From IMG/VR virus record IMGVR_UViG_3300031227_000532, positions 1 to 20,862 of that record: a DNA stretch of 20,862 bases, one strand, 5' to 3'. Position 1 is the first letter of the stretch; every line of letters starts with the position of its first letter. Under the pieces are notes generated by a model. The model did not search any database, was not told the origin of the DNA, and saw nothing but the letters and a program-made list of their open reading frames with translations. Positions 7,336 through 20,229 of the stretch are shown in pieces. The DNA comes from a virus. The position numbers and the translations under genes are program-made.

Positions 7336-7497
7336 TTAGCCAGAGCCAGAGCCAGAGCCAGAGCCATCGCCATAGCCAGAGCCATCGCCATAGCCAGAGC
7401 CATCGCCAGAGCCATAGCCAGAGCCAGAGCCATCGCCATAGCCATAGCCAGAGCCATAGCTAGAGCCAGAGCCAGAAATTTTAATTATTTCTTCCAT
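7336..7497 (-). CDS. Gly-X repeat micro-protein, copy 1 (53 aa)
   Basis: From the ATG at 7497 the frame reads MEEIIKIS followed by 45 residues in which every second residue is Gly and the others are only Ser, Tyr or Asp (one Ser replaces a Gly early on), ending at TAA 7336-7338. The start codon overlaps the end of the upstream DUF6948-like gene by 13 bases, as in copy 2, and the first eight residues are identical in both copies. A translated frame is thus more likely than a passive repeat. The composition is that of a flexible, low-complexity, Tyr-containing polypeptide. No enzymatic function is expected. Similar (Gly-Ser/Tyr/Asp)n tails occur near DUF6948 genes as far as I recall, but this was not searched. 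Confidence 0.62.
   Translation of the reverse strand: MEEIIKISGSGSSYGSGYGYGDGSGSGYGSGDGSGYGDGSGYGDGSGSGSGSG
7339..7479. repeat. Hexanucleotide microsatellite (agagcc/atcgcc/atagcc)
   Basis: About 140 bases made of near-perfect six-base units ending in gcc, which vary only in the preceding triplet. On the minus strand the units are GGC plus TCT, TAT or GAT. All frames stay open because no unit contains a stop in any frame, which produces several spurious long ORFs on both strands. Slipped-strand or unequal exchange should easily change its length. Confidence 0.95.
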
Positions 7498-7862
7498 ATT
7501 TTCACCTCGTCAAGATTTTTACTTGACTGTTCAGTTAATGGGAGAATCTCTATAACATTAGCTATAAACTGACTATCTATGGCTTCTGTTATTTTACAAT
7601 TTTTCTGGGTCTTAGAACCTTCCATTGCTAGCTGCGTTAAAGAGCAAGCCCCATCCCAATAATAAATCCTTTTTGCTTTTACTAATATAACATTAACTCC
7701 ATTAAGTTCTGCTTTCTTCTCTTTGACATACCCAAAAAATACTCCCGCACCATAACTTCTAACAACACATCTTTCAAGACCGTCAACTTTCTCCGCTGGC
7801 TTTTGCACGGCATCAGCCCTCACACACTTTACTTCATCAATCATTATCGTTTCTGGTTTCAT
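7485..7862 (-). CDS. DUF6948-like protein, copy 1 (125 aa)
   Basis: Starts at the ATG at 7862 with SD GAGGAGAAATATA. It shares most of its sequence with the 8130-8510 product: MIDEVK-x-VRADAVQKPAEK near the N-terminus, 'VRSYGAGVFFGYVKEKK', then 'YYWDGACSLTQLAMEGSK', and a closing 'IWKK'. The 'V-R-[ST]-Y-x-AGVF-x-G' and 'YW-[DS]-GA-x-SL-x-Q-[LI]-A' motifs recall the phage DUF6948 family, whose function is unknown. The protein has no signal peptide or membrane span. It is directly overlapped by the Gly-X micro-protein gene. The two copies differ at many positions, so the duplication is old or the copies diverged under selection. Confidence 0.78.
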   Translation of the reverse strand: MKPETIMIDEVKCVRADAVQKPAEKVDGLERCVVRSYGAGVFFGYVKEKKAELNGVNVILVKAKRIYYWDGACSLTQLAMEGSKTQKNCKITEAIDSQFIANVIEILPLTEQSSKNLDEVKIWKK

Positions 7863-7890
7863 TATATTTCTCCTCGGTTATGTTGTGATT

Positions 7891-8142
7891 TTAGCCATCG
7901 CCATCGCCAGAGCCATCGCCATAGCCAGAGCCAGAGCCAGAGCCATCGCCATAGCCATCGCCATAGCCAGAGCCATCGCCATCGCCATAGCCATAGCCAT
8001 CGCCATCGCCAGAGCCATCGCCATAGCCATAGCCATAGCCATAGCCATAGCCAGAGCCATAGCCAGAGCCATCGCCAGAGCCATCGCCATAGCCAGAGCC
8101 AGAGCCAGAGCCAGAGCCAGAAATTTTAATTATTTCTTCCAT
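7891..8142 (-). CDS. Gly-X repeat micro-protein, copy 2 (83 aa)
   Basis: Begins at the ATG at 8142, inside the last codons of the upstream DUF6948-like gene. It reads MEEIIKIS followed by 75 residues of strictly alternating Gly with Ser, Tyr or Asp, ending at TAA 7891-7893. It is 30 residues longer than copy 1, all of the difference being in the repeat. Its termination and the spacer after it (to the next gene's SD) match copy 1 at nearly every base. It is probably disordered and might phase-separate or bind a partner through Tyr residues; that is inference only. Confidence 0.65.
   Translation of the reverse strand: MEEIIKISGSGSGSGSGYGDGSGDGSGYGSGYGYGYGYGYGDGSGDGDGYGYGDGDGSGYGDGYGDGSGSGSGYGDGSGDGDG
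7894..8121. repeat. Hexanucleotide microsatellite, longer copy
   Basis: About 230 bases of the same six-base units as at 7339-7479. The order of unit types differs from the first copy, so the two arrays are not simple recent copies of each other base for base. They share only unit type and edge sequences (gccagaaattttaattattt on one side and ttttagcc on the other). Confidence 0.95.
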
Positions 8143-8510
8143 ACTTCTGCCCCCATTATATTTGTTTTAGCTTTTTCTGATACAGGGATAATTTCAACAA
8201 CATTTGCGATGAACATTTCTGGAATAACCATAGCTACCCGACAATTAGAAATATCTTTGCTTCCCTCCATTGCGATTTGGCTTAGACTACAAGCTCCACT
8301 CCAATAATGTAACCTTCTTGAATTAACTAATATAACATTAACCCCATTCCTGTCGTTTTTCTGCTCTTTGACATATCCCACAAATACTCCCGCACCATAA
8401 GACCTAATAACACAACATTTCATTCCGTCAACTTTCTCCGCTGGCTTTTGCACGGCATCAGCCCTCACATACTTTACTTCGTCAATCATTACCGTTTCTG
8501 GTTTACTCAT
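8130..8510 (-). CDS. DUF6948-like protein, copy 2 (126 aa)
   Basis: First gene after the strong leftward promoter and structured leader. The ATG at 8510 has SD AAGGAGAAAG. The product carries MIDEVKYVRADAVQKPAEKV, 'CVIRSYGAGVFVGYVKEQ', 'RRLHYWSGACSLSQIAMEGS' and ends 'AEVWKK'. It parallels copy 1 along its whole length with scattered substitutions. The conserved Y-x-AGVF-x-G and YW-x-GA-x-SL-x-Q blocks suggest a small beta-rich domain of the DUF6948 type; its role is not known. Being promoter-proximal, it should be among the most strongly expressed early products. Confidence 0.8.
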   Translation of the reverse strand: MSKPETVMIDEVKYVRADAVQKPAEKVDGMKCCVIRSYGAGVFVGYVKEQKNDRNGVNVILVNSRRLHYWSGACSLSQIAMEGSKDISNCRVAMVIPEMFIANVVEIIPVSEKAKTNIMGAEVWKK

Positions 8511-8676
8511 TTTACTTTCTCCTTGTGTTTTTAATTAAATAGCAACAGCGACGCAAGCGGCATGACACCAGAAAGACCAGGGGAACCAAGAGCACTAAGA
8601 GAAAGCTCAATGGTGGTCAAAAAGGAACCGCTTGCGTCGCTAAATTTTATTGTTTTTTTGTTGTCTGGTGTCATGC
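8511..8676 (-). ncRNA. Structured 5' leader with pseudoknot topology
   Basis: Between the predicted transcription start (about 8676) and the ATG at 8510 lie two perfect inverted repeats that interleave. Arm A is 8547-8560 with partner 8628-8641 (14 bp: agcgacgcaagcgg / ccgcttgcgtcgct). Arm B is 8561-8572 with partner 8664-8675 (12 bp: catgacaccaga / tctggtgtcatg). Reading order A-B-A'-B' can only form together as a pseudoknot. Arms A and B abut, so the helices could stack. A further imperfect hairpin (8575-8618: gacca...tggtc, cca...tgg, gagc...gctc) sits inside. The 5' end of the RNA would be the outer B strand. It could be a leader controlling stability or translation, or a processed RNA; no terminator follows it. 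Confidence 0.6.
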
Positions 8677-8681
8677 TTTTT

Positions 8682-8710
8682 AGTATACCTTATGTTTGTT
8701 TTTATGTCAA
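8682..8710 (-). promoter_or_regulatory. Consensus sigma-70 promoter, leftward early operon
   Basis: On the minus strand TTGACA (8710-8705), a 17-base spacer and TATACT (8687-8682) form a near-perfect sigma-70 promoter. The spacer ends CATAAGG directly before the -10, as in the rightward promoter at 12506-12534. The expected start is at about 8675-8676, exactly the edge of inverted repeat B. Confidence 0.85.
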
Positions 8711-10195: not shown

Positions 10196-10273
10196 TTGTT
10201 CACCTACTTTTTTGTTTGTTCCCGGACTTTGGACCGGGAATGTAGTTTAAACGCGCTTGCGCGCGCCCCATCA

Positions 10274-10579
10274 CTATTTGATAAACTCGAAATTTTTAAG
10301 ACTCCGGCCTAGATCGCGCCAAACGTCCGCGCACTGGTATAGCTCGAGCGCCGTGCGGCCGTATTTGGCGCGTATGTGGTATTGCTTGCGCGCTTCAGCG
10401 CTTCCGCGCACGATCCCGCCGATAATGCCATAAGCGCCGTAGAAGATACCCGGCGCAAGCGCGAATACTAACGCGTTAATAATAACGATCTTGACTAATA
10501 GTCCCTTTATACGCTTGTTAATGGGATATTTTAGCTTCCCGGCGTACGGTTGCTTCTTATTGAATGATAATAATTTCAT
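10274..10579 (-). CDS. Membrane protein with one or two spans, 101 aa
   Basis: The ATG at 10579 follows SD AGAGGAGAAA. After a basic N-terminus (KKQPYAGKLKYPINKRIKG) comes a hydrophobic stretch 'LLVKIVIINALVFALAPGIF' and 'YGAYGIIGGIV', enough for one long or two short spans, then a basic soluble tail ending 'LGRSLKNFEFIK'. Positive charge before the span suggests an N-terminus inside the cell. Function unknown. In a phage it could be an exclusion, holin-like or accessory protein, but nothing specific shows this. Confidence 0.7.
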   Translation of the reverse strand: MKLLSFNKKQPYAGKLKYPINKRIKGLLVKIVIINALVFALAPGIFYGAYGIIGGIVRGSAEARKQYHIRAKYGRTALELYQCADVWRDLGRSLKNFEFIK

Positions 10580-11829: not shown

Positions 11830-11868
11830 GTGCTAAATGAAAGAAAGTGAAAATAGTTTATCCCGGCG

Positions 11869-12037
11869 TGTCCAACGTTGTCCTACTGGTTATTTGGTAG
11901 GTTGGACGGGATTGCTTATATATCATTATATATAGGGACCTACTGGTCCTACTAGTCCTACTGAATATAGGATATAACTAGCTAGGTATAAATGGGTGTT
12001 ATACGTGTCCTACTGGTTTAGTAGGACAGGTTGGACA
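11869..12037. repeat. Cluster of TCCTACTGG and TGTCCAAC motifs
   Basis: TCCTACTGGT or close variants occur at 11881, 11938, 11947, 11956 and 12008. TGTCCAAC or its complement occurs at 11869, 11901 and 12030. Two composite blocks (11879-11908 and 12007-12037) combine both motifs in inverted order. The second forms a perfect hairpin tgtcctact-ggttt-agtaggaca (12006-12028). This looks like iterons or a multi-site operator. No U-run follows, so it is not a terminator. Confidence 0.75.
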
Positions 12038-12248
12038 TGAGGCCCTTTCTTATGGTTTTTTTGTGTTACTCTTATCCCCTCTTATATACTCTTGTATTCC
12101 CCTATACAATTGTATACCCTACTATACAATAGGCCCTTAGATGCGATTCTCACGCGTCGTTTCAGAGGGCCCGCCACTATAATGGCATGATATAGCATAT
12201 TATACCCTATTGCATACACTGCATGTCATGTGATATAGCGTGTTCATG

Positions 12249-12312
12249 GCCCTTAGATCATGGGCATTGGCGCAATCCCCACGGGCATGGCTTCAAGGAT
12301 ATGCCCAAGGGC
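12249..12312. repeat. Long imperfect inverted repeat
   Basis: gccctt (12249-12254) pairs with aagggc (12307-12312) and gggcat (12262-12267) with atgccc (12301-12306), with a one-sided bulge, giving up to 12 pairs around a 33-base loop. A second gggcat in the loop (12283) offers an alternative pairing. Possible cruciform or protein-binding site. Confidence 0.45.
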
Positions 12313-12505: not shown

Positions 12506-12534
12506 TTGACACTTCAACATCCATAAGGTATACT
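12506..12534 (+). promoter_or_regulatory. Consensus sigma-70 promoter, rightward morphogenesis operon
   Basis: TTGACA (12506-12511), 17-base spacer and TATACT (12529-12534), again with CATAAGG directly before the -10. The start is expected near 12541. A small hairpin gggat...atccc (12545-12564) follows in the leader, then SD GGAGGAAT before the ATG at 12591. Confidence 0.85.
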
Positions 12535-16429: not shown

Positions 16430-17014
16430 ATGAGAAAAATTTTTATGTTAACGTTAATAGGAATGCTGGTCTGCGGGTTAGCTTTCGCAGCAGGGAACAA
16501 AAATGATTTGGCGTATTTAGCTACTACTGAACTTGAAACAGCATCTACGGTATTAGCCACTGACGAGATAATTATTGTGAAGAGTGATATTCCTATGCAA
16601 GGAATGACAGTATCAGATTTGTCTAAAGTTAATGTTGCGGGAATAAGAGTAAAAACGACCACTCGGAATACAACTATTTTAGCGACAGAGACAGGGAAAA
16701 CTTTTATCTGTACTGCTAACTCAAAGTTTCAGTTACCCCCAGCAGCAGAAGGATTGAATTATACTTTTGTCACGGTTGGTTCTGCTGAAGTTGAGATTCA
16801 GGTAAACACTACTCCCGACACAATTGTATTAGTTAGTGCGGGAGATGGTGACGGATCCCAAGGTAAAATAGAGACAGGCATAAATACTACAGGTAACACT
16901 ATCACTCTTATCTCTGACGGTACAAGTTGGTATGCTATGACTAAGTATACTTCAGAAGCCGGCTGGGTTGACGGTGGCGTATGGTTAGCATTCTCTACAG
17001 GAGAAAACGAATAG
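16430..17014 (+). CDS. Secreted beta-rich protein with signal peptide, 194 aa
   Basis: ATG with SD CAGGAGGAACGG. The N-terminus MRKIFMLTLIGMLVCGLAFA is a classic signal peptide, so the product should leave the cytoplasm. The mature part is Thr-rich and beta-like ('VAGIRVKTTTRNTTILATET', 'KFQLPPAAEGLNYTFVTVGS', 'NTITLISDGTSWYAMTKY'), resembling surface or fibre-type domains. A signal peptide is unusual for a virion protein, so it may act at the cell envelope. It overlaps the O-antigen-ligase-like gene. The two may be a functional pair that changes the host surface. Confidence 0.68.
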   Translation: MRKIFMLTLIGMLVCGLAFAAGNKNDLAYLATTELETASTVLATDEIIIVKSDIPMQGMTVSDLSKVNVAGIRVKTTTRNTTILATETGKTFICTANSKFQLPPAAEGLNYTFVTVGSAEVEIQVNTTPDTIVLVSAGDGDGSQGKIETGINTTGNTITLISDGTSWYAMTKYTSEAGWVDGGVWLAFSTGENE

Positions 17015-18189
17015 TGATTATTGGGCTGTTATTAATTGGCCTAGCAGTTACCCCGTTCATCTTGGCTCCCGGCGCGGAAGATCTCGCCCGGGAGCCTAAG
17101 ATGGCTTGGGCGCTTGTGTTTGCTTTATCTATCGGCTTAGCTGCACTTTATCGAGGAACGCTCAAACCTTTCAAAAATAAGTGGGCTCTTGCTCTTGTAG
17201 GTTTTTGTCTTTTGAGTTTTTATCTTGCACCTAAACCTGACCTTACGTTTTTTGGTGTTAGGTCGGCTAGATTCTGGTCGTGGGAACCTCTGTATCAAGG
17301 ACTTGTGTTTTTACTTTTTACTATAGCAGTATCGAGTATAAAGCTAACTCGTCAGAAAATAGACTACATACTTACCACAATGGTTTGGTGTGCAGGGATA
17401 ATGGCTTGTTTTGTGATACTTCAGTTTTTTGGATTAGATCAATTCTTCGAGCACAGATACGGAACCTATGGGCGCATGGCTGGAACTATAGGAAACCCTA
17501 CTTTAATTGGCCCTTTCTTATGTTTAAATTTACCACTTATGTTTTATCAGAAACGCAAAGCTTTTGCAATACTTTCGATTATAGCTATTCTGGCTACACG
17601 ATCCGATGTTGCGGCTATAGGATTAATACTGACTTGTTCTATTTACTTAATGCTTAAAAGTCGTAAACTTTTTATTTATGGGGCAGGACTGGGAGCGGCA
17701 ATTGTTTTAACGGTTGCGAGTGTATATATTACAAACCCTACTTTCAGAAACATATGCCCTGATAACGAACGCTTTCTTACTTGGACGCGTAGTTTGGCTA
17801 CTCTTACAACTCCAGTAATGCGAGACTCTAAAAAAATATATGCTATAACAGGGATAGGCCCTGGGAGTTTTAAATATATCTACCATACCCAACACGAGAA
17901 ACAGAAAGTCGAGACTTCAGCGTATGCGCATAATGAATATGTGCAGACCACCTATGAATTAGGAATTGTCGGACTTATTTTATTTATAGGCCTAATCGTT
18001 GTTATCTTACGACAGAAGGGAGGGGGTCCAGCGCATAGAGCTTTAATGTCAGGACTAATAGGTATTCTTGGGTGTGCGGGAGGTATCTTTATTTTTCAAG
18101 TCGGAACACATATTTTTTACACTCTCACTATTGTGGGATTGCTCTGCAATGAATCAGTTTGTGCTAAGGAGGAGATATGCCAACAGTAA
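17014..18189 (+). CDS. O-antigen ligase/polymerase-like membrane protein (Wzy_C type)
   Basis: I prefer the GTG at 17014, which overlaps the previous stop (TAGTG) with AGGAG upstream, giving 391 residues. A frame-compatible ATG at 16981 would add 11. The protein has about ten hydrophobic spans. A periplasmic segment carries 'GIGPGSFKYIYHTQ' and 'AHNEYVQTTYELGIVGLILF', with an upstream 'AGTIGNPTLIGPF': the hallmark blocks of WaaL/Wzy-type O-antigen ligases and polymerases, which join O-chains to lipid A core or to each other. Phages use such genes to alter the host surface and block superinfection. No separate promoter or terminator frames it, and the portal SD lies within its last codons. Confidence 0.82.
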   Translation: MIIGLLLIGLAVTPFILAPGAEDLAREPKMAWALVFALSIGLAALYRGTLKPFKNKWALALVGFCLLSFYLAPKPDLTFFGVRSARFWSWEPLYQGLVFLLFTIAVSSIKLTRQKIDYILTTMVWCAGIMACFVILQFFGLDQFFEHRYGTYGRMAGTIGNPTLIGPFLCLNLPLMFYQKRKAFAILSIIAILATRSDVAAIGLILTCSIYLMLKSRKLFIYGAGLGAAIVLTVASVYITNPTFRNICPDNERFLTWTRSLATLTTPVMRDSKKIYAITGIGPGSFKYIYHTQHEKQKVETSAYAHNEYVQTTYELGIVGLILFIGLIVVILRQKGGGPAHRALMSGLIGILGCAGGIFIFQVGTHIFYTLTIVGLLCNESVCAKEEICQQ

Positions 18190-19896: not shown

Positions 19897-20229
19897 ATGG
19901 GAGAAGCAAGAATTTCTAAGGAACGGAAAGAAGCAGAGACTAAAGCATACAATGCGTTTGCTAACAAAATGAAAGCATCGCTTTCAGACATGTCTAAGAA
20001 TGAGGCAGGATTACAAGTGCTTCGTCACCAGTTACATACTAGTGGCTTTCTTCTTCCTCTGACACACGGAACACCCGAAGGCATAAACACCCAATTACTT
20101 TTGCAAAACGAATCAAAACGAATGATGTATTTAAGTCTACGCGTTCACATGGACAACGAAACTATTATACGCGTAGAGATGGACGAAGTATCACCACCAA
20201 AACAGGAGGAAACTAATGCCGGAGCCTAA
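19897..20229 (+). CDS. Small virion-module protein (Bbp19-like?), 110 aa
   Basis: The ATG at 19897 lies one base after the portal stop, with SD ACAGGAGGA. The product begins MGEARISKERKEAETKAYNA (helical, basic) and includes 'EAGLQVLRHQLHTSGFLLPL' and 'ESKRMMYLSLRVHMDNETII'. The 'L-x-H-x-L...G' and 'R-x-M-x-L-x-L' pattern recalls the Bbp19-type family often placed between portal and scaffold, but the match is loose. The C-terminus is acidic and flexible. It overlaps the scaffold start by 14 bases. Function unknown, probably structural by position. Confidence 0.6.
   Translation: MGEARISKERKEAETKAYNAFANKMKASLSDMSKNEAGLQVLRHQLHTSGFLLPLTHGTPEGINTQLLLQNESKRMMYLSLRVHMDNETIIRVEMDEVSPPKQEETNAGA

What the first reader, a model, noticed from the sequence alone, without database searches (positions are those of the whole stretch)
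8511..8676. Two interleaved perfect inverted repeats beginning at the transcription start
Arms of 14 bp and 12 bp are ordered A-B-A'-B', the topology of a pseudoknot. A and B touch end to end. The outer B' strand begins at the predicted first base of the RNA, and a branched hairpin fills the inner loop. Perfect long arms in an otherwise drifting intergenic region imply selection. The two helices can form together or compete, which would suit a switch. I know no phage leader of this layout.
Basis: partly seen in the sequence, partly recalled or inferred. Interest (0 to 1): 0.75.

Follow-up and report, generated by a model that had tools for sequence, protein, structure and literature searches.

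The report
Pseudoknot leader before phage Sm-like gene
A phage messenger RNA appears to begin inside an unusually long, perfectly paired knot just ahead of the gene for a small protein with a predicted RNA-binding (Sm-like) shape, most likely as a control or protection device for that gene, although no relative covers the site, so selection on it is unproven.

Summary
The repeats are real. Arm A (14 bp, 8547-8560/8628-8641) and arm B (13 bp, 8560-8572/8664-8676) are perfect, interleaved and touching. They are the only perfect inverted repeats of 10 bp or more within 150 nt in the window. A leftward promoter (8710-8682) puts the RNA start at B'. The same 19-of-19 promoter motif lies at 12506 (+), and variants precede the capsid gene in sibling contigs.

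Best reading: a structured 5' leader whose coaxial pseudoknot buries the RNA 5' end and sets up a translational switch. Autoregulation by the Sm-like product is plausible but inferred. No homologous leader was found, so covariation could not be tested, and perfect arms alone do not prove selection. Closest known system: the T4 gene 32 leader pseudoknot. New variant of a known kind; interesting, unproven.

The parts
8682..8710 (-). Promoter TTGACA - 17 nt (ending CATAAGG) - TATACT
   Evidence: Consensus scan 11 of 12; 19 of 19 motif bases shared with the promoter at 12506 +; variants before the capsid gene in sibling contigs
8664..8676 (-). B' (5' strand of helix B, RNA nt 1-13); predicted +1 at 8676-8674
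   Evidence: Perfect 13-bp complement to 8560-8572
8642..8663 (-). L1, 22-nt A-rich loop (CAACAAAAAAACAAUAAAAUUU)
   Evidence: Sequence
8628..8641 (-). A' (5' strand of helix A, RNA nt 36-49)
   Evidence: Perfect 14-bp complement to 8547-8560
8573..8627 (-). L2, 55 nt, with a bulged hairpin at 8618-8575
   Evidence: Folding, -13 kcal/mol
8593..8612 (-). C: anti-RBS segment inside L2
   Evidence: 17 bp with 8508-8527, -20.3 kcal/mol, 4 of 4000 shuffles; strongest of 27 window genes
8560..8572 (-). B (3' strand of helix B, RNA nt 105-117)
8547..8560 (-). A (3' strand of helix A, RNA nt 117-130), directly abutting B
8508..8527 (-). C': ribosome-binding site with SD (8516-8521) and start codon (8508-8510) of the DUF6948 gene
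   Evidence: Sequence; pairs with C
8130..8510 (-). DUF6948 gene, predicted Sm/LSm-like fold
   Evidence: PF22253 E 3.7e-21; model pLDDT 92.5; fold matches
8531..8674 (-). 47-codon open frame (plus stop) across the whole leader, AUG at or 2 nt after the predicted +1; coding status unclear
   Evidence: Translation and coding score

Best explanation
It is a structured 5' leader of the leftward mRNA that starts at 8676-8674 and encodes the Sm-like DUF6948 protein. Helix B (RNA nt 1-13 with 105-117) forms first as the RNA emerges. Helix A (36-49 with 117-130) then closes, and the two stack end to end as a pseudoknot of about 26 bp with the RNA 5' end buried at the junction, which should protect the mRNA from 5'-end-dependent decay. 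In that state the 36-nt A/U-rich segment with the RBS is largely open. The large loop carries an anti-RBS (C) that can pair with the SD and AUG instead of staying in its local hairpin, shutting translation. I think the most likely trigger is the gene's own Sm-like product, binding A- or U-rich loop segments and annealing C to the RBS (negative autoregulation, working like Hfq or T4 gp32 on their own mRNAs). Shown: arms, promoter motif, anti-RBS complementarity. Predicted: Sm-like fold and pseudoknot fold. Inferred only: 5'-end protection, switching, autoregulation. The confidence given is for a cis-acting RNA element controlling this gene; the autoregulation step alone I put near 0.25.
For: Non-chance interleaved perfect arms, unique in the window. 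Order argument: a single inverted duplication would give nested arms, not interleaved ones. Promoter with the same 19 of 19 bases at a second place in the window, so the 5' end is credibly placed. Prefix folding makes B before A. Anti-RBS at -20.3 kcal/mol with 4 of 4000 shuffles as good, the most extreme of 27 window genes (z -4.1) and more extreme than any of 31 DUF6948 relatives. The DUF6948 model matches Sm/LSm proteins throughout the top of the list. Parallel design in the same phage group: a promoter variant before the capsid gene is followed by a structured leader with compensatory changes and an invariant GUCAAAC complementary to the capsid RBS; the 12506 promoter is followed by a 5'-proximal hairpin.
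Against: No related leader was found, so there is no conservation or covariation. Other DUF6948 genes lack such arms and lack an anti-RBS, so this is not a general feature of the gene family. The nearest DUF6948 homologue (L013, 69%) has a structured but nested leader. About 1% of genome windows pair with this RBS equally well (8 of 638, own leader and antisense strands included). The pseudoknot ends 25 nt before the SD and does not itself cover it. Fold matches have Z below 8, so the Sm-like assignment is not certain, and RNA binding is untested.
Confidence: 0.5

Rival explanations
1. Passive 5' stabiliser and insulator: the pseudoknot only shields the 5' end from decay enzymes and keeps the RBS region open; there is no switch and no ligand, and the anti-RBS match is fortuitous.
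For: B' starts within 2 nt of the predicted +1; helices leave the SD mostly unpaired in the nested ensemble; other promoters of this class are also followed by 5'-proximal hairpins.
Against: Does not explain the -20.3 kcal/mol anti-RBS, the most extreme of 27 genes, nor the need for two crossing helices where one hairpin would do.
Confidence: 0.25
2. Leader-peptide gene: the region is a 47-codon leaderless open frame (8674-8534, stop 8533-8531) ending 9 nt before the SD. Ribosomes translating it unwind A, B and the anti-RBS and so couple its translation to the DUF6948 gene.
For: Open frame runs from an AUG at or 2 nt after +1 to just before the SD; coding score 0.04 lies between genes (0.16) and off-frame pieces (-0.25).
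Against: A frame this long stays open in 18% of shuffles; no homologue of the peptide in the loci compared; the AUG is inside helix B; no SD.
Confidence: 0.12
3. DNA-level or mutational origin: arms arose by two template-switch events, or serve as protein-binding or recombination sites in DNA, with no RNA role.
For: Arms are perfect with no G-U pairs in 26 positions, as recent copying would give; no conservation is demonstrable.
Against: One copying event gives nested, not interleaved arms; neither arm is itself a palindrome as most operators are; no recombinase was recognised among the window genes scanned; the coincidence of B' with the RNA start and of A/B with an anti-RBS is unexplained.
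Confidence: 0.1
4. Self-cleaving ribozyme of HDV-like crossing topology at the 5' end of the mRNA.
For: Helix order resembles HDV P1/P2; the same operon carries a real twister ribozyme.
Against: No Rfam match even at relaxed threshold; B and A abut, so the joining strand that carries the catalytic cytosine in HDV-like ribozymes is absent; helix B is 13 bp, not 7.
Confidence: 0.02

Closest known systems
T4 gene 32 mRNA translational operator (5' pseudoknot, autoregulated by gp32; PMC535899)
   Same: Phage mRNA leader with a pseudoknot on the 5' side, followed by a less structured A/U-rich stretch holding the SD; downstream gene encodes a (here predicted) nucleic-acid-binding protein.
   Different: The T4 pseudoknot component is about 28 nt; here it spans 130 nt, with helices of 13 and 14 bp, no nucleotide between B and A, and a large L2 with a hairpin and anti-RBS. 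The product is Sm-like, not a single-strand DNA-binding protein. Autoregulation is shown for T4, only proposed here.
E. coli hfq mRNA autoregulation (PMC6348989)
   Same: An Sm-family protein repressing translation from its own 5' UTR; here the leader likewise has U-rich and A-rich segments and an ARN-like RBS (AGGAGAAAG).
   Different: The account read describes two binding sites in the hfq UTR, not a long pseudoknot or cis anti-RBS; DUF6948 is not Hfq by sequence and its RNA binding is untested.
H-type pseudoknot riboswitches and ribosomal-protein leaders (preQ1-II, SAM-II, S15, alpha operon; from own knowledge)
   Same: Pseudoknot near an RBS that controls initiation.
   Different: Shorter helices that usually involve the SD region directly; no Rfam match here.
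HDV-like ribozymes (from own knowledge)
   Same: Crossing order of the two main helices; first helix begins at the RNA 5' end.
   Different: No joining strand between B and A for the catalytic cytosine; helix B too long; no Rfam match.

Membership tests
Phage leader pseudoknot of the T4 gene 32 kind | two crossing helices on the 5' side of an mRNA leader | tested here: met
   Arms A and B interleave and abut; pairing follows from sequence and is not probed
Phage leader pseudoknot of the T4 gene 32 kind | structure conserved or covarying among relatives | not testable with these tools
   No related leader found in the collections searched
Phage leader pseudoknot of the T4 gene 32 kind | gene product binds the leader and represses its own translation | not testable with these tools
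   Only a fold prediction of the product is available
Sm/LSm proteins (DUF6948 product) | Sm fold | tested here: inconclusive
   Listed VIA matches are Sm/LSm or Sm-like, Z 6.0-6.9, several at 1.6-2.0 A over 58-61 residues; Foldseek probability up to 1.00 but E about 0.02; Z stays below 8
Sm/LSm proteins (DUF6948 product) | recognisable Sm sequence signature | tested here: not met
   Profile of 49 DUF6948 sequences finds no Sm chain in the PDB up to E 10; hence called Sm-like by predicted fold only and not filed as a member
Sm/LSm proteins (DUF6948 product) | ring oligomer and RNA binding | not testable with these tools
   No complex prediction or assay available
Known Rfam RNA families (riboswitches, leaders) | covariance-model match | tested here: not met
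   No match at 8511-8676 at gathering threshold; only chance-level matches at relaxed threshold
HDV-like ribozyme | joining strand with catalytic cytosine between the 3' strands of P1 and P2 | tested here: not met
   B and A abut with no nucleotide between them

The most novel reading that the evidence does not exclude
A phage-encoded Sm-like protein autoregulates through a leader in which three helices interleave in the order B'-A'-C-B-A-C' (5'-end helix, clamp helix, anti-RBS): a pseudoknot that both buries the 5' end of the mRNA and positions a cis antisense segment for annealing to the RBS.
Probability: 0.2. Interest if true: 0.7.

Novelty: new variant of a known kind. Interest (0 to 1): 0.45.

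Why it matters
If true, it would be another natural design, besides T4 gene 32, in which a phage mRNA leader carries a pseudoknot that controls a nucleic-acid-binding protein, with a topology (long coaxial helices, no junction nucleotide, buried 5' end) unlike the short H-type pseudoknots of known leaders. It would also point to a function for DUF6948, a family with hundreds of relatives in viral contigs, a predicted Sm-like fold and no paper in the library searched, and would give a testable case of Sm-mediated autoregulation in phages.

Tried and rejected
Homologous leaders: blastn against phage records (only weak short matches, E 0.08 or worse); the DUF6948 protein and two DUF6948 profiles against viral contigs and genome contigs; the primase/VapE protein; the A-B junction 15-mer (44 hits, near what chance would give in a collection of this size by my estimate); the promoter pattern; the portal (siblings L138-L140 found, but contigs of 4-6 kb that do not reach the leader). 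No usable relative, so no covariation test. Interleaved long arms upstream of other DUF6948 genes: none. Interleaved arms elsewhere in 1.44 Mb of fetched loci: only short or repeat-derived cases, about what chance predicts; L072 (terminator whose loop is complementary to an upstream segment) and L051 (tight intergenic case) looked at and set aside as different. Rfam at gathering and relaxed thresholds: nothing at the site. Coding test of the 47-codon frame: ambiguous. Anti-RBS as a general DUF6948 feature: rejected (mean z 0.09 over 31 relatives). The DUF6948 paralogue at 7485-7862 has only a short leader after the repeat gene. Sequence search of DUF6948 against PDB chains: no Sm chain.

Full report
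What is there. On the minus strand the RNA predicted to start at 8676-8674 reads B' (nt 1-13), 22-nt A-rich L1, A' (36-49), 55-nt L2, B (105-117), A (117-130), then 36 nt that include the SD (156-161), and the AUG of the DUF6948 gene at 167. All 26 bases of the contiguous B-A strand have Watson-Crick partners. In the whole 20,862-base window these are the only perfect inverted repeats of 10 bp or more with arms within 150 nt, and shuffles give 0.015 interleaved pairs of 10/10 bp per window. Chance is excluded; a mutational origin is not formally excluded.

Where the RNA starts. The promoter at 8710-8682 has TTGACA, a 17-nt spacer ending CATAAGG, and TATACT. The same 19 bases in the same spacing occur at exactly one other place, from 12506 on the plus strand, upstream of the rightward (packaging/structural) operon. 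Close variants stand before the capsid gene in sibling contigs L139, L140, L242, L244 and L246. L139 and L140 have portals 96% and 78% identical to the window's, and L242 matches the end of the gene at 19897-20229 at 100% over 26 residues. This makes the promoter and the 5' end credible, though unmapped.

Folding. Nested prediction chooses A plus the L2 hairpin (-46 kcal/mol); B plus the L2 hairpin gives -40.8. Prefixes of the transcript form B first, and A only when nt 130 is out. B (about -20 to -23) and A (about -28) share only base 8560, so both can form. With B and A abutting, the 22-nt L1 has to span both helices, which by my own estimate (about 73 A of helix against more than 110 A of chain) is possible. 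The pseudoknot is therefore predicted, not shown.

Anti-RBS. Segment 8593-8612 in L2 pairs with 8508-8527 (CACAAGGAGAAAGUAAAAUG) by 17 bp, -20.3 kcal/mol; 4 of 4000 dinucleotide shuffles of the leader do as well. Tested in the same way, this gene has the most extreme anti-RBS of 27 window genes (z -4.1; next -2.9), while 31 other DUF6948 genes average z 0.09 with a minimum of -1.6. As a caution, 8 of 638 windows of the genome, own leader and antisense strands included, pair as well with this RBS. The three pairings follow the order B' A' C B A C'.

The gene. 8130-8510 is DUF6948 (PF22253, E 3.7e-21). A confident model (pLDDT 92.5) matches Sm and LSm proteins at the top ranks (Foldseek probability up to 1.00 but E about 0.02; second look Z 6.0-6.9, e.g. 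1i8f at 1.7 A over 59 residues, and 3by7, an Sm-like protein from an uncultured source). A sequence profile sees no Sm relation. I therefore call it Sm-like by predicted fold only. The paralogue at 7485-7862 (64% identical) has no leader of this kind.

How it probably works. A leader that starts in a closed, stacked structure should resist 5'-end-dependent decay (established for bacterial mRNAs; inference here). The L2 loop can either close on itself, leaving the RBS open, or pair with the RBS. A protein with an Sm-like fold made from this very mRNA is an obvious candidate to drive that exchange. Precedents are Hfq on its own mRNA, which binds a U stretch and an RBS-spanning ARN site (PMC6348989), and gp32 on its leader pseudoknot (PMC535899). 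A supporting analogy comes from the same phage group: the capsid-gene leader has a 5'-proximal stem in which four pairs are changed on both sides and kept, and an invariant GUCAAAC that can pair with the invariant GUUUGAC at the capsid RBS. Shown: arms, promoter motif, complementarity. Predicted: folds. Inferred: protection, switching, autoregulation.

What could not be done. The nearest DUF6948 homologue, L013, has its own strongly folded but nested leader (z -2.9). This hints that leaders of this gene can be structured, not that this structure is conserved.

Rivals. A purely passive stabiliser is the strongest rival and shares most of the evidence. The 47-codon open frame across the leader could be a translated leader peptide that couples to DUF6948, but its coding score is ambiguous and such a frame is open by chance in 18% of shuffles. 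A DNA-level or mutational origin is disfavoured by the interleaved order. An HDV-like ribozyme is disfavoured by the absent joining strand and the lack of any Rfam match.

Verdict. A real, non-chance leader element; most likely a regulatory and/or protective 5' pseudoknot of an Sm-like gene; a new variant of phage leader pseudoknots, unproven.

Noticed in passing
10222-10275 (-): Twister-P5 self-cleaving ribozyme (54.2 bits, E 5.7e-9) between genes of the leftward operon, upstream of this leader.
   Followed up: no
L139 2678-2868, L140 3544-3735, also L242, L244, L246: Capsid-gene leader of sibling phages: same promoter class, structured RNA (folding z -4.9 and -3.4), compensatory changes in its first stem, invariant GUCAAAC complementary to the RBS GUUUGAC; no Rfam match in the L139 copy. 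Possibly an undescribed structured RNA family.
   Followed up: partly
16981-18189 (+): O-antigen ligase-like membrane protein (Wzy_C) in the structural operon between terminase and portal; 56% identical to the sibling L138 while the portal is 94% identical, so a fast-changing gene that may modify the host surface.
   Followed up: no
7336-8142: Two tandem copies of a DUF6948 gene, each followed by a hexanucleotide-repeat gene coding Gly-Ser/Tyr/Asp repeats; DUF6948 is also followed by such repeats in L009, L011 and L013.
   Followed up: partly
11850-12250: Intergenic region between the divergent operons with repeated TCCTACTGG-type motifs, possibly a replication or regulatory region.
   Followed up: no
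L072 931-1018: Strong intrinsic terminator hairpin (14 bp plus T-run) whose loop is complementary to CCGGACAGG about 35 nt upstream of the hairpin, looking like an attenuator in another DUF6948 phage.
   Followed up: no
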